Origin: Salinisphaeraceae bacterium
GTDB taxonomy: Bacteria; Pseudomonadota; Gammaproteobacteria; Nevskiales; Salinisphaeraceae
Assembly (NCBI GenBank): GCA_002683405.1
Contig: NYTH01000050.1
Location: 1 to 64,000 of the forward strand
Reading direction: 5' to 3'
DNA length: 64,000 nucleotides
The translations under genes were made by a program, and so were the position numbers. The notes beneath the pieces were generated by a model. The model ran no database searches. It saw only the letters and a program-made list of their open reading frames with translations, and was not told the DNA's origin. Positions 1 through 16,095 of this stretch are shown piece by piece. How positions within the stretch are numbered: the first letter of the stretch is position 1; every line of letters begins with the position of its first letter.

Positions 1-68
1 AGATACATCGTCCGGGCGTGAAGATCGATGCCGCAGAAATACGCGTGGTTCTGGTTATAGAATCTCAC
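1..68 (-). CDS. IS110/IS1111-family transposase, N-terminal end only (cut by window edge)
   Basis: Reading the minus strand from a GTG at 68-66 gives about 22 residues containing CGIDLHARTMY. This is the start of IS110-family (DEDD) transposases; the Asp of GIDLHA is the first catalytic acid of the RuvC-like domain. A strong Shine-Dalgarno AAAGGAGG lies at 82-75, seven bases before the GTG. The rest of the gene lies outside the window. The position beside an attC-like site fits the IS1111-attC group, which is known to target integron cassette recombination sites. The family call is firm; the subgroup is inferred from context. Confidence 0.75.
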   Translation of the reverse strand, partial: MRFYNQNHAYFCGIDLHARTMY

Positions 69-69
69 C

Positions 70-157
70 GAGGCCTCCTTTTTCGTCGACTATGCAATGT
101 ACACAGTCTGGGATAGCAGTTTGACCTGCCGAGCCCGAAATCGGAGAAGGAGGCCTC
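70..157. repeat. Inverted repeat next to IS110/IS1111 transposase start
   Basis: Bases 70-84 and 143-157 are inverted copies with 13 of 15 positions matching; the inner 11 bases (AAGGAGGCCTC read at 147-157) match exactly. IS1111-group elements carry subterminal inverted repeats of about this length. One copy also contains the ribosome binding site of the transposase. It is not clear from this window which copy marks the element end, or whether the 58 bases between them are IS sequence. Confidence 0.5.
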
Positions 158-159
158 AA

Positions 160-232
160 TGAGTATCAAGGCGCTGCAGTTGACCCATGCTCCGCTACGC
201 TCCGCATGGTCAACTGAGCTTCAGCGTTGGGC
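160..232 (+). other. Integron attC-like site, left half disrupted
   Basis: The right core GTTGGGC (226-232) matches GTTRRRY exactly. In front of it is a long imperfect hairpin: AGTTGACCCATG (178-189) pairs with CATGGTCAACT (205-215) with one bulged base, and CGCTG (172-176) pairs with CAGCG (222-226). The loop TCCGCTACGCTCC is almost identical to that of the second site at 715-788. A left core RYYYAAC is not present in place, consistent with disruption by the neighbouring insertion sequence. Bulged palindromes with such cores are the defining form of attC sites. Confidence 0.65.
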
Positions 233-253
233 ACCCTCAAGGAGGCTTAGAGA

Positions 254-499
254 ATGAACGATAAAAGGAGACTTTGTCTCGTTGCTGGTGGCGTGATAGC
301 AATATTAATGGTGCTGTTTCCGCCGTTCCATATCGTACAGGGGGAACATACTGCAAACGTTGGCTACGGTTTCATCGCCACTCCTCCGAACTATTACGCG
401 TCTGTCAATGTGCTAACTCTTGCGGTTCAAATCTTCGGACTTGCCATCGCAGTAGCAGTTGTTTGGTATGTGCTTGGAAAAAACGGGAATGAAAAATAA
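254..499 (+). CDS. Small two-helix membrane protein in integron cassette
   Basis: This is an 81-residue protein of unknown function. Two hydrophobic segments are visible: residues about 7-27 (after the basic MNDKRR start) and about 52-74, before a short charged tail. The loop between them (about 28-51) should be periplasmic. A good ribosome binding site (AAGGAGG) lies just before the ATG. The gene sits 20 bases after the GTTGGGC core, as expected for the first gene of a cassette, and is followed two bases later by a second small gene. Its base and codon use are clearly more A+T-rich than the chromosomal genes further right. No family recognised. Confidence 0.7.
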   Translation: MNDKRRLCLVAGGVIAILMVLFPPFHIVQGEHTANVGYGFIATPPNYYASVNVLTLAVQIFGLAIAVAVVWYVLGKNGNEK

Positions 500-501
500 C
501 A

Positions 502-711
502 ATGTTCGGGCTTGAAAAATCAAATGAAGATCAGCTAGGCCCATTCAGGTATGTATATCTGGTGCTGGAATCCTATACGGAAGGTGAGTTGGGTCTTCCA
601 CGCCTCAGCCATTCTTGTGCTAGTGCCGAGGAACTACGGTATGAAGTTGAAAAAATAAAAGCAGAGCTGGATACCATGGTTAATCGAGCCGCTCGCCTCT
701 TTCAAGCGTAG
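502..711 (+). CDS. Small soluble hypothetical protein in integron cassette
   Basis: This is a 69-residue, mildly acidic protein with no signal peptide or membrane segment. Residues about 41-65 (SAEELRYEVEKIKAEL and following) look like one amphipathic helix. It starts two bases after the stop of the upstream membrane-protein gene, so the two are probably translated together, and its stop falls three bases before the attC-like core at 715. Codon use is A+T-rich like its neighbour. Function unknown; a partner role for the membrane protein is only inferred from the arrangement. Confidence 0.6.
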   Translation: MFGLEKSNEDQLGPFRYVYLVLESYTEGELGLPRLSHSCASAEELRYEVEKIKAELDTMVNRAARLFQA

Positions 712-714
712 GGT

Positions 715-788
715 GCCCAACAATGCCGTGGTGAGGGACGTTTGCTCCGCTACGCTTCGCAAACGCCCCTCACGGCTGGCGTTGAGGC
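715..788 (+). other. Integron attC-like site (cassette end)
   Basis: The left core GCCCAAC (715-721) fits RYYYAAC and the right core GTTGAGG(C) (781-788) nearly fits GTTRRRY. Between them GCCGTG...CGTTTGC (725-744) pairs with GCAAACGCCCCTCACGGC (759-776) with extrahelical bases, leaving the loop TCCGCTACGCTTC. The left core is exactly complementary to GTTGGGC at 226-232. That is expected if both came from one circular cassette spanning about 227-781. About 74 bases is within the usual attC range. Confidence 0.75.
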
Positions 789-853
789 TGTAGAAAAACC
801 CCTCGTGGGGTAAAATTCCTGTCCGTGTCCCATGCCCATTGCGAGGCGTTTGC

Positions 854-1011
854 GTGCCACGGTTCAAGGCTTATAACTACGACCAGCAAGTCATGCTGGC
901 TATCGATTTTCGTCGACAGATCCAGCCCGGCACCTTCGAGTGGGCGATTAATCTTGTGGTGGATACGCGTCTGGACATGGCGGTGTTTGACCATCGCTTT
1001 GCCAATGACGC
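854..1011 (+). pseudogene. IS1182-like transposase, N-terminal remnant
   Basis: From a GTG at 854 the frame reads VPRFKAYNYDQ, then QPGTFEWAIN and a MAVFDHRFAND segment. These match the start of IS1182-family transposases (PRFKxYDYxQ, QxxPGTxExxIN, DLxVFDxRYxND). Homology stops at about residue 53, where an IS3-type end begins (about 1012), and nothing downstream restores it. The frame runs open to 1060 but the last residues are not transposase-like. The element is dead, truncated by a later insertion. Confidence 0.65.
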
Positions 1012-1255
1012 TGACGTCCCCCCGTCTTCAGTAGCACTCAGTACTGGAATCCATGGATAAACTAGCAGCTTGCTGGGCAAGCTGCTCGGCATATTGGGAG
1101 GGGGTAAGGCCACCCAATGATTTCTTCGGGCGTTCTCGGTTGTACTCGCGTCGCCAGGCTTCGATGATCCGCTTGGCGTGCTCAAGACTGACGAACCAGT
1201 GTTCGTTCAGGCACTCATCCCGGAATCGCCCATTGAAGGATTCAATATGGAGACT
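1012..1255 (-). pseudogene. IS3-family transposase, C-terminal remnant with terminal repeat
   Basis: The minus-strand frame ending at 1028 encodes IESFNGRFRDECLNEHWF, later EAWRREYNRERPKKSLGGLTPSQYA. This is the C-terminal end of the IS3-family OrfB integrase (DDE) domain, including the glutamate-bearing ESFNG motif. The outer end at about 1012 reads TGACGTCCCCCCGTCTTC, like an IS3 terminal repeat starting with TG. The inner end breaks off at about 1247-1255; residues coded beyond it are not transposase. Only about 80 of about 280 residues remain, so it is inactive. Confidence 0.7.
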
Positions 1256-1276
1256 AAAGGGGTCAGAGCCCTTTAA
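1256..1276. repeat. Imperfect palindrome AAAGGGG-TCAGAG-CCCTTT at IS breakpoint
   Basis: A short imperfect palindrome with AAAGGG and CCCTTT arms sits exactly where the IS3 remnant loses homology. In the minus frame it codes KGSDPF, a peptide often seen at the ends of REP-associated tyrosine transposase reading frames. It may be a REP-like scrap. Nothing else in this window confirms that. Confidence 0.35.
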
Positions 1277-1341
1277 CCTGGCGCGCTTTCTCACGTTGCC
1301 GTGAAATCCAAGAAAACCGGATCAGCGTAGTACTGCGGTAA

Positions 1342-14391: not shown

Positions 14392-14431
14392 CGCGCCCCG
14401 AGCCCTGGCCGCGAGGCCATGGCGGGGCGCG
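14392..14431 (+). other. Strong hairpin between the two rubredoxin genes
   Basis: CGCGCCCCG (14392-14400) pairs exactly with CGGGGCGCG (14423-14431), and an inner TGGCC/GGCCA stem (14406-14410 and 14415-14419) closes on GCGA. There is no T-run after it, so it is more likely an mRNA-stabilising or processing hairpin than a terminator. Confidence 0.55.
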
Positions 14432-14461
14432 CAAAATCGACATGATCAACAGGAAGTATTG

Positions 14462-14629
14462 ATGAAAAAGTGGCAGTGCATCGTCTGCGGGTTTGAATAC
14501 GACGAGGCAGCGGGGATGCCGGACGAGGGCATCGAACCGGGCACGAAGTGGGACGATGTGCCCGATGACTGGACCTGTCCCGATTGCGGCGCACCCAAGG
14601 CCGACTTCGAGATGATGGAAGTCGACTAG
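14462..14629 (+). CDS. rubA: Rubredoxin, AlkG2-type
   Basis: 55 residues. CIVCG (6-10) and CPDCG (39-43) bind the single iron, and the tail [13 protein letters not shown] is typical of AlkG2-type rubredoxins, which pass electrons from rubredoxin reductase to AlkB. The family aromatic and acidic residues ([14 protein letters not shown]) are intact. No rubredoxin reductase gene is in the window. A ribosome binding site-like AGGAAG lies just before the ATG. Confidence 0.95.
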
Positions 14630-14650
14630 CCTGCTCCTGATCGTGAAGAA

Positions 14651-14681
14651 GCCGCCGCAGTGATTGCGGCGGCTTTTTTTT
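14651..14681 (+). terminator. Rho-independent terminator of the alkB-rubredoxin transcript
   Basis: A perfect nine-base stem GCCGCCGCA/TGCGGCGGC with a five-base loop is followed by eight T residues. It lies 21 bases after the second rubredoxin gene. Confidence 0.9.
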
Positions 14682-14699
14682 GCCCGGGTGAGCCGTGCG

Positions 14700-14840
14700 C
14701 TAGCTGTTTTCTTCGGCTTCCTCGGATATTTCCTCGCCGGCGGCTTCGATGTCTTCGCCGGCACCCTGGATGGTGTTGCAGCCGCTCAGGCCGAAGACGG
14801 CCGCGTAGGACAGAGCCATGAACAAGGCCATTCTTCGCAT
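14700..14840 (-). CDS. Entericidin-like small lipoprotein
   Basis: 46 residues with a basic start, a hydrophobic stretch and the lipobox LSGC (18-21). The mature part NTIQGAGEDIEAAGEEISEE is the acidic, Gly-containing pattern of the entericidin A/B family. A GGAGTATGTG leader gives a ribosome binding site. These are small membrane-anchored lipoproteins linked in E. coli to stationary-phase lysis control; the role here is not established. Confidence 0.8.
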   Translation of the reverse strand: MRRMALFMALSYAAVFGLSGCNTIQGAGEDIEAAGEEISEEAEENS

Positions 14841-14925
14841 CACATACTCCTTTGAAATCGGTTGATGAGACCGGAAGCGCGATGACCGGCTCCGGCGCGA
14901 TAACGCTAGCATGTGCCCTGCGGCA

Positions 14926-16095
14926 TCAAACTCCGTAATTCTTCGGGCCTGCCGGCCCGGTCTGCCCTGCACAGATGCGTCGGGCCGCCAGCCGGGCGCC
15001 GGCGATATTGGGTGCAGCCGGGCCCACCACCAGTTCGGCCAGCCGGCCGGTCACGTAGAGTCCCGGCCGCCAGGCCAGCTGCGCATCGGGCAGCGGCGTG
15101 CCGCGCGCATCGACCGGCATCGACAGCGTCTTCGCAGCCTGCGCCAGCCAGGGCTGCAGGGGCGGTGAAGCCTCGAAACCCGTGGCCAGAACCACCGCGT
15201 CGCTGCGCACGGCGGCGTCCGTGTCGGTATGCAGCAGGCCGTCTTGCCAGCCGTTCACCCGAGCCTGTATGCGACGGAGGCGGCCGTCCTGGGCGGCGCG
15301 CTGCAGCGCCTCGGCCATGATAGGCGGCAGGCTGCCCGGCGCCCGGGCCGTGTCGATAACGGCGCGACGCGACTGCGCGTCGGGCAGGGCCTGAAAGTTC
15401 TCCAGGCAGCGCCGGCCCAGAAAACAGGGGTCGGAATCGAAATCCGACAGCGGCGCGGGCGGGCCAATCAGCGTGACCGGCCGATCCGGGCGGGCGAGAC
15501 TCAGCGCCAACTGCGCGCCGCTCAGGCCGGTGCCCACCACGGCCGGGCAACGGGCGTTGGCCACGGCCTGACGCCGGAAGTTCTCTGCCAGCACGTGCTG
15601 TACGCCGGGCCCGGCCCAGTGCGGCACCGCGGGCGCGCCGGGCCCGGTCGCCAGCACGACGCGGTTGGCCTCGACCGTGCCGGCCTCGCTCGAACTGCGG
15701 CGCCAGTGCAGCGCGTAGCCGTTGCCGCTGGCTTGCAGGTCGGTGGCCCGCCCCTGGATGTAGCGGCATGCCGAGAGCGTGCCGACAACGTGTAGCGCGT
15801 GCCGGTTGAACAGGTCCAGCGCCGGTCGGCGATAGCGGCCGGCCAGCCTGGCCCGGTCGACCTGACCGGCAAAGCGAAGCAGCGAGTGGGCGGGCACATC
15901 CAGATGATGCGCGGCCGGCGAGCGCAGGGTCTGCATGCCCACCTGCGTGCACTGCCCAAGCCAGCGTGTCAGGGGCGTTTCGTGCTCGTCGAGCAGGGCG
16001 ATATTGGCCGGGTCAACGCCGGCCCGCTCGATCAGCGACCGGGCCACATGCACGCCGTGCAGGCCGGCGCCCACAATCAGCCAGGGGATCGCCAT
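14926..16095 (-). CDS. FAD/NAD(P)-binding flavoprotein
   Basis: 389 residues. PWLIVGAGLHGVHVARSL (4-21) is an N-terminal FAD-binding GxGxxG loop; a second GTGLSGAQ motif lies near the middle, and ATGF (in VVLATGFEASPP) is the conserved strand of class B flavin monooxygenase and lysine N6-hydroxylase-like proteins. It probably uses FAD plus NADPH. The substrate cannot be told. It lies 12 bases downstream of sixA on the same strand. Confidence 0.65.
   Translation of the reverse strand: MAIPWLIVGAGLHGVHVARSLIERAGVDPANIALLDEHETPLTRWLGQCTQVGMQTLRSPAAHHLDVPAHSLLRFAGQVDRARLAGRYRRPALDLFNRHALHVVGTLSACRYIQGRATDLQASGNGYALHWRRSSSEAGTVEANRVVLATGPGAPAVPHWAGPGVQHVLAENFRRQAVANARCPAVVGTGLSGAQLALSLARPDRPVTLIGPPAPLSDFDSDPCFLGRRCLENFQALPDAQSRRAVIDTARAPGSLPPIMAEALQRAAQDGRLRRIQARVNGWQDGLLHTDTDAAVRSDAVVLATGFEASPPLQPWLAQAAKTLSMPVDARGTPLPDAQLAWRPGLYVTGRLAELVVGPAAPNIAGARLAARRICAGQTGPAGPKNYGV

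What the first reader, a model, noticed from the sequence alone, without database searches (positions are those of the whole stretch)
1..788. Integron cassette remnant (attC-like pair) beside an IS110/IS1111 element
Two bulged palindromes with GTTRRRY/RYYYAAC cores and near-identical loops (TCCGCTACGCT.CG) bracket two small genes. The left core of the second site (GCCCAAC, 715-721) is exactly complementary to GTTGGGC at 226-232, as required if 227-781 was one circular cassette. No integrase gene is present, so this looks like a CALIN (attC sites without integrase). An IS110/IS1111 transposase starts right next to the disrupted first site, matching the known IS1111-attC habit of inserting in attC sites.
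Basis: partly seen in the sequence, partly recalled or inferred. Interest (0 to 1): 0.75.

Follow-up and report, generated by a model that had tools for sequence, protein, structure and literature searches.

The report
Integron tail interrupted by IS1111 element
The start of this sequence is the far end of an ordinary chromosomal integron, a bacterial gene-collecting platform, cut in two by a known kind of jumping element; its integrase gene is not missing but most likely sits on another piece of the unfinished assembly.

Summary
Window 168-232 and 715-787 are attC sites that bracket one cassette (227-781) with two small genes. A covariance model built only from other genomes' attC sites finds both: 35.3 bits, E 1.1e-6 over 64 kb, for the first; 24.5 bits for the second, only with filters off. 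The cassette's two core ends are complementary over 12 of 12 bases.

Bases 1-167 are one end of an IS1111-attC group element. It sits exactly behind the lost R'' box, with a 12-bp subterminal repeat and the family's 7-bp extension. The matching other end, with the 3-bp extension, lies at the left end of contig C45, right behind an R'' box.

"CALIN" is not supported. The window begins at a contig end, and C45 carries a full integron integrase, an attI and four cassettes. The simplest reading is one integron, split in assembly at the IS; no contig spans the gap.

This is a new member of known kinds. Off the window I noticed two more attC arrays headed by attI-like sites without an integrase, and IS91-family transposases that appear to travel as gene cassettes.

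The parts
1..68 (-). first 22 codons of an IS110/IS1111-family transposase (GTG start at 68-66); cut off by the contig start
   Evidence: tblastn of the 23-residue N-terminus: 15 plasmid records, best 69.6% identity; several annotated 'IS110 family transposase'; position
149..160 (-). subterminal inverted repeat (12 bp) of the IS1111 element, tnp-upstream (left) end; 10 of 12 bases match the right-end copy on contig C45 (82-93), counted by eye
   Evidence: rule of 11-13 bp sTIR from PMC11187229 (passage)
161..167 (-). 7-bp left-end extension of the IS (GATACTC read outside-in); IS boundary at 167/168
   Evidence: same GATACTC in 4 of 6 plasmid relatives examined, one base off in the other 2; 7-bp rule from PMC11187229 (passage)
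168..232 (+). attC site 1 without its R'' box (IS inserted directly behind R''); R' = GTTGGGC 226-232
   Evidence: model R1: 163-232, 35.3 bits, E 1.1e-6 over the 64-kb window; same arm sequences in attCs of 5 of 9 same-family arrays scanned
227..781 (+). gene cassette, crossover G^TT to G^TT
   Evidence: start and end cores complementary 12 of 12
254..499 (+). 81-aa hydrophobic protein (by eye two membrane helices), no known family
   Evidence: the ORF listing; no Pfam, PADLOC or NCBIfam match, no plasmid or viral relative; only weak PHROG hits, best E 0.11
502..711 (+). 69-aa protein, no known family
   Evidence: no match; one weak PHROG hit, E 0.14; not searched in viral contigs
715..787 (+). 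attC site 2 (last one seen of the array): R'' 715-721, R' 781-787
   Evidence: 24.5 bits on +, 2.7 on - (filters off); DNA fold z about -4
839..1060 (+). truncated reading frame that resembles the N-terminus of an IS1182/IS5-type transposase (recalled; no library match): debris beyond the array
   Evidence: no Pfam, NCBIfam or PHROG match
1028..1294 (-). C-terminal fragment of an IS3-family transposase: debris beyond the array
   Evidence: rve_3 E 2.6e-21; IS3 model positions 317-368 of 369, below that model's cut-off

Best explanation
Window 1-788 is the distal end of a complete chromosomal integron. Reading in array direction: intI (C45:3141-4079, divergent), attI, four cassettes, then the fourth cassette's attC split by an IS1111-attC element directly behind its R'' box (R''^AAGGCG). 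The rest of that attC, one last cassette (227-781) and its attC follow in the window, and then chromosome with IS debris. Inferred mechanism: IntI recombines folded attC against attI between G and TT, which put this cassette in place. A seekRNA-guided DEDD transposase of the IS1111-attC group later inserted at the R'' end of the upstream attC. That separates R'' from the rest of the hairpin and probably blocks recombination there, so the last cassette and the one before it are likely stuck. Shown here: attC sites, cassette ends, IS end anatomy, presence of intI and attI in the genome. Inferred: physical adjacency of C45 and C50, activity of IntI, and the effect of the insertion.
For: attC model hits in the window. 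attCs in 5 of 9 same-family intI-linked stretches share the arms CGCTGCAGTTGACC and AACTGAGCTTCGGCGTT (or near forms) with site 1. Full IntI on C45. attI core CTAATCAGCTG^TT on C45, with CTAATCACTG^TT in Pseudomonas borbori and Aeromonas tecta next to their intI. GGAGGCCTCA occurs four times in the genome; only C45 (82-91) and C50 (149-158) have IS-like flanks, the other two do not. The window's first 130 bases occur nowhere else in the assembly. C45's last R'' (GCCTAAC, 97-103) mirrors the start of its own cassette over 10 of 12 bases and abuts the 3-bp right-end extension and sTIR. Orientation of both halves fits one element. PF01548 gives 0 matches in the assembly and PF02371 only a fragment with a stop on C4, as expected if the IS interior is the unassembled gap.
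Against: No contig spans the junction; a second, collapsed IS copy could join C45 and C50 to other ends. Site 2 was found by the model only with filters off, and its R' ends in G, not Y. The supposed attC at about C45:1450-1370 was not found by the model and one core base departs (TTTGGGG). Model R1 found no attC in the six plasmid IS relatives. The two cassette proteins have no relatives in the searches made. IntI of this genome is closer to Pseudomonas, Aeromonas and Halopseudomonas (61-63%) and to a genome of another family of the same order (64%) than to same-family genomes (49-54%), so the integron may have been acquired by transfer.
Confidence: 0.82

Rival explanations
1. A true CALIN: the C50 cassette lies far from the C45 integron, and each was hit by its own copy of the same IS1111-attC element, with the assembler collapsing the copies.
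For: The IS interior is absent from the assembly, which often means a multi-copy repeat. Other attC arrays without an integrase beside them exist on C46 and C54 of this genome.
Against: Two copies would leave four IS-target ends; an exact search for the shared repeat found only one left and one right end, in a genome given as 99.11% complete.
Confidence: 0.13
2. Not attC sites but REP-like or IS hairpins with chance core motifs.
For: The loop is short and palindromic; site 2 scores modestly (24.5 bits).
Against: The exact loop 14-mer occurs only in three attC sites of the genome; 12-of-12 core complementarity; strand-specific model score; site 1 E 1.1e-6.
Confidence: 0.02
3. The element at 1-167 is another IS110-family member that landed near the attC by chance, not an attC-targeting one.
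For: Only 22 codons and 167 bases are in the window; target choice depends on the NCR, most of which is not in the assembly. Model R1 found no attC beside the six plasmid relatives.
Against: Insertion exactly behind R'' on both halves; left end GATACTCATTGAG exact in 4 of 6 plasmid relatives, and a GTT core right outside the other end in 4 of 6.
Confidence: 0.03

Closest known systems
Chromosomal (sedentary) integron with IntI, attI and attC array
   Same: intI, attI, cassettes with mirrored R'/R'' cores, attC sites of the same lineage as in same-family genomes
   Different: short (five cassettes by my scaffold) and split across contigs, apparently by an IS
IS1111-attC group (Tetu and Holmes 2008, Post and Hall 2009, both seen only as references; ISKpn4, ISPst6, ISPa25 from passages of PMC11187229)
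   Same: insertion at one end of attC, 12-bp sTIR, 7-bp and 3-bp extensions, no duplicated target bases visible
   Different: only the ends are in the assembly; the transposase N-terminus is at most 69.6% identical to the plasmid relatives found; not compared with ISfinder
CALIN (cluster of attC sites lacking an integrase)
   Same: attC sites with no intI on the same contig
   Different: the window starts at a contig end and the genome has an intI with a fitting broken array

Membership tests
Integron gene cassette with attC | attC: conserved R''/R' and L''/L' boxes in an imperfect palindrome | tested here: met
   R1 model: site 1 E 1.1e-6 over 64 kb; site 2 24.5 bits, filters off only. IntegronFinder's own model was not available.
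Integron gene cassette with attC | R' at the cassette start complementary to R'' at its end | tested here: met
   12 of 12; first seven bases match 6, 7, 6 and 7 of 7 for the four C45 cassettes
Complete integron | intI gene | tested here: met
   C45:3141-4079, TIGR02249 393.6 bits over cut-off 265; on another contig
Complete integron | attI next to intI | tested here: met
   CTAATCAGCTG^TTGAGCC on C45; compared by eye with the regions upstream of intI in five relatives, clear in four, doubtful in L046
Complete integron | intI and the window cassette on one DNA molecule in one array | tested here: inconclusive
   single left and right IS1111 end in the genome, fitting orientation; no spanning contig
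IS1111-attC group | DEDD transposase of the IS1111 family | tested here: inconclusive
   only 22 codons; IS110-family tblastn hits; PF01548 not found in the assembly
IS1111-attC group | sTIR of 11-13 bp with 7-bp and 3-bp extensions | tested here: met
   12 bp, 10 of 12 identical; 7 bp on C50, 3 bp on C45, if both halves are one element
IS1111-attC group | insertion at one end of an attC site | tested here: met
   R''^AAGGCG: directly behind R'' on C45 and directly before the attC remainder in the window
IS1111-attC group | seekRNA from the downstream NCR matching attC | not testable with these tools
   most of the NCR is not in the assembly
CALIN | attC sites with no integrase in the neighbourhood | tested here: inconclusive
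   neighbourhood cut by the contig end; intI present elsewhere with fitting ends

The most novel reading that the evidence does not exclude
The genome runs one integron integrase against several platforms: besides the C45/C50 integron, two distant arrays (C46, C54) each begin at an attI-like site with no integrase beside it. One of these holds a member of a clade of IS91-family (Y2/HUH) transposases that live as gene cassettes. Since IS91-type transposases are postulated to move their DNA as single strands (PMC7923331, passage), and IntI recombines folded single-stranded attC (recalled), such a cassette could supply its own substrate for capture.
Probability: 0.25. Interest if true: 0.6.

Novelty: new member of a known kind. 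Interest (0 to 1): 0.3.

Why it matters
For the window itself, little: it is a worked example of how an IS1111-attC element can break an assembly and make a complete integron look like a CALIN. The genome around it is more useful. Finding integrase-less arrays behind attI-like sites offers a handle on how CALINs arise, and the cassette-borne IS91 transposases would link two single-strand DNA recombination systems if their activity were shown.

Tried and rejected
Rfam on the window gave nothing at gathering scores. A strict core-plus-fold scan of C50:1-20000 missed both window sites, because site 1 lacks R'' and site 2's R' departs by one base. The 81-aa protein had no relative in plasmids or viral contigs; the 69-aa protein had none in plasmids and was not searched in viral contigs; neither had a convincing relative in the loci held. 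The loop-plus-arm pattern of site 2 occurs in 1 of 61 genomes searched, our own. C39:108495, a one-mismatch loop hit, gave no attC. C4:1441 and C36:11435 share ten bases with the IS ends but not the flanking ends. The R1 model found no attC in the six plasmid IS relatives; the left flank of L191 looks like the Colwellia attC in L062 by eye only. The genome-wide R1 search scored 150 of 6960 first-look candidates and did not list site 2, so its list of attCs is a lower bound. On alignment A1, four of five covariation measures exceeded nearly all shuffles, but the number of further pair types did not (474 of 500 shuffles as high).

Mirrored-core test for the IS91 cassettes, shuffles as good out of 300: L202 1, L203 0, L204 29, L205 225, L206 36, L207 33, L185 19, own C46 271; control L208 233. 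So the own copy and L205 are not significant alone. The script stopped with an error before controls L209 and L210 were scored.

Model R1 rests on 15 sites: 13 of 35 candidates plus 2. I left out longer or doubtful sites by hand; none of the 15 comes from this genome.

I considered and set aside an IS91 insertion at CAAG of an attC as the cause of the C46 arrangement: in relatives the bases behind R'' vary (AAG, AAC, AAT, GAG).

Full report
WHAT IS THERE. The window starts at base 1 of contig C50 of a 58-contig, 3.72-Mb assembly. Bases 168-232 and 715-787 carry two palindromes with the loop TGCTCCGCTACGCT. In the whole genome this 14-mer occurs exactly three times: these two and a site on contig C46, which scores 60.3 bits as an attC by a model built from other genomes. 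Between the sites lie two small genes (254-499 and 502-711). The two ends of the implied cassette, GTTGGGCACCCT and AGGGTGCCCAAC, are complementary over 12 of 12 bases.

attC TEST. From stretches next to integron integrases of other genomes I collected attC candidates and aligned 15 of them. Their structure is supported by covariation: 91.0% of cells paired against 76.8% in shuffles, 0 of 500 shuffles as high; one of five measures, the number of further pair types, did not exceed shuffles, and relatedness of the rows inflates the rest, as that tool warns. The covariance model R1 found site 1 at 35.3 bits, E 1.1e-6 over 64 kb, although its R'' box is gone; the next hit in the window had 12.0 bits. 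Site 2 appeared only with filters off on 1-1600: 24.5 bits on the + strand, 2.7 on the - strand. E-values are rough by construction. In 5 of 9 same-family stretches scanned, attCs carry the same arms as site 1, so this looks like the attC lineage of the family.

THE IS. The minus strand of 1-68 encodes 22 residues of an IS110/IS1111 transposase. Reading inward from 167 there is GATACTC, then ATTGAGGCCTCC. On contig C45, reading inward from base 96, there is ACC, then TATGAGGCCTCC, and right outside it the box GCCTAAC. [quoted passage not shown] Both halves obey it if they are one element. I examined 6 of 15 plasmid records with a related transposase N-terminus. GATACTCATTGAG is exact in 4 of 6, one base off in L190 and two off in L188; all six have TT just outside, as here. 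In 4 of 6 the right end is followed by GTT and a core-like box; in L191 the right-end motif is followed by other sequence, and in L189 I did not see it in the stretch printed. Model R1 gave no hit in these six.

THE INTEGRASE. C45:3141-4079 encodes a 312-residue integron integrase (TIGR02249, 393.6 bits against a cut-off of 265). Its nearest named relatives in the capped list are in Pseudomonas borbori (63%), Aeromonas tecta and Halopseudomonas yangmingensis (61%); 41 of 61 genomes searched, our own counted, have an IntI at E 1e-40 or better. Upstream of it lies CTAATCAGCTG^TT, like the CTAATCACTG^TT next to intI in two relatives, followed by four cassettes on the minus strand. They encode a 131-residue protein, a TIR-domain protein (TIR_2 E 2.5e-28; similar to several defence proteins), and proteins of 207 and 157 residues without a Pfam or PADLOC match. 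Start and end cores mirror in 6, 7, 6 and 7 of 7 bases. R1 finds two attCs among these cassettes (761-683 and 2461-2366); the one between the second and third cassette I placed by eye. The fourth cassette ends in R'' at 103-97 and the IS follows. GGAGGCCTCA occurs four times in the genome, and only C45 and C50 have IS-like flanks. PF01548 finds no copy of the transposase in the assembly and PF02371 only a broken fragment on C4. I therefore read C45, the IS and C50 as one integron with five cassettes. The IntegronFinder 2 paper (passages) states that draft genomes overestimate CALINs because integrons are divided between contigs.

HOW IT WORKS. Established for integrons (recalled): IntI recombines folded attC with attI between G and TT. 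Inferred here: the IS parted R'' from the rest of the upstream attC, so neither that cassette nor the last one should be excised normally. PMC11187229 (passage) did not detect the restored target after circle formation of ISEc11, so such an insertion may be long-lived.

WHAT I SAW BESIDES. Two further arrays stand on C46 and C54, with two attCs each above 31 bits (the genome-wide search scored 150 of 6960 candidates). Both begin at an attI-like site, and these two sites share about 50 nearly identical bases. The integrase model has no match on C46 or C54, and 84 other genomes of the order lack the sequence at E 0.01. On C46 the first cassette is an IS91-family transposase (NF033538 E 4.6e-86). 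In 369 genomes of the class, 9 have a relative at E 1e-40 or better, own included. With six other close ones (39-47%) and a Thiolapillus plasmid copy (41.5%) there are eight loci. The start G^TTGNACA is seen in 7 of 8; L206 has GTTGGACG. A stretch TTTCCTATATAAGGAA is exact in L204, L205 and L185 and altered in the own copy and L203. In 6 of 8 the model places an attC in which the reading frame ends (own, L202, L203, L204, L205, L185; L202 is weak, E 0.014); in L206 and L207 the nearest downstream model hit lies 0.2-0.5 kb further on. Three distant matches (30-35%) in two genomes look different: no attC in L209 and L210, and one model hit in L208 more than 1 kb upstream on the other strand. The mirrored cores are significant alone in only part of the loci (counts under Tried and rejected). 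[quoted passage not shown] The listings of searches show no paper plainly about this clade; they cover open-licence papers only and I read passages of few.

VERDICT. The attC pair and the IS1111-attC insertion are real and known kinds. The CALIN reading is most likely an assembly effect.

Noticed in passing
L041 (C46) 14405-15628, minus strand; relatives L202-L207 and L185: An IS91-family (Y2/HUH) transposase gene lies between an attI-like site and an attC, like a gene cassette; seven relatives (39-47%) share much of this plan, and in 6 of the 8 loci the reading frame ends inside a model-scored attC.
   Followed up: partly
L041 15626-15680 (C46, minus) and L180 3650-3711 (C54, plus): Two attI-like sites (..TCTAATCAGCTG^TT), nearly identical over about 50 bases, head cassette arrays without an integrase beside them; not found in 84 other genomes of the order.
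   Followed up: partly
L041 13145-13954 (C46, minus): Cassette gene of 269 residues that resembles candidate defence proteins PDC-S11 (E 3e-31) and PD-T4-3 (E 5.7e-13).
   Followed up: no
L040 1448-2350 (C45, minus): Second cassette of the integron encodes a TIR-domain protein with similarity to anti-phage TIR proteins.
   Followed up: no
L180 3246-3644 (C54, plus): A 133-residue gene of unknown function ends about 60 bases before the C54 attI-like site; DNA like its 3' end (70% over 165 bases, attI-like site included) precedes the C46 site too, though a protein search finds the gene only on C54.
   Followed up: partly
window 64-85 and 142-163: A second copy of the IS subterminal repeat motif GAGGCCTCC lies at the transposase start codon, inverted to the one at the IS end; it may overlap the ribosome-binding site.
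   Followed up: no
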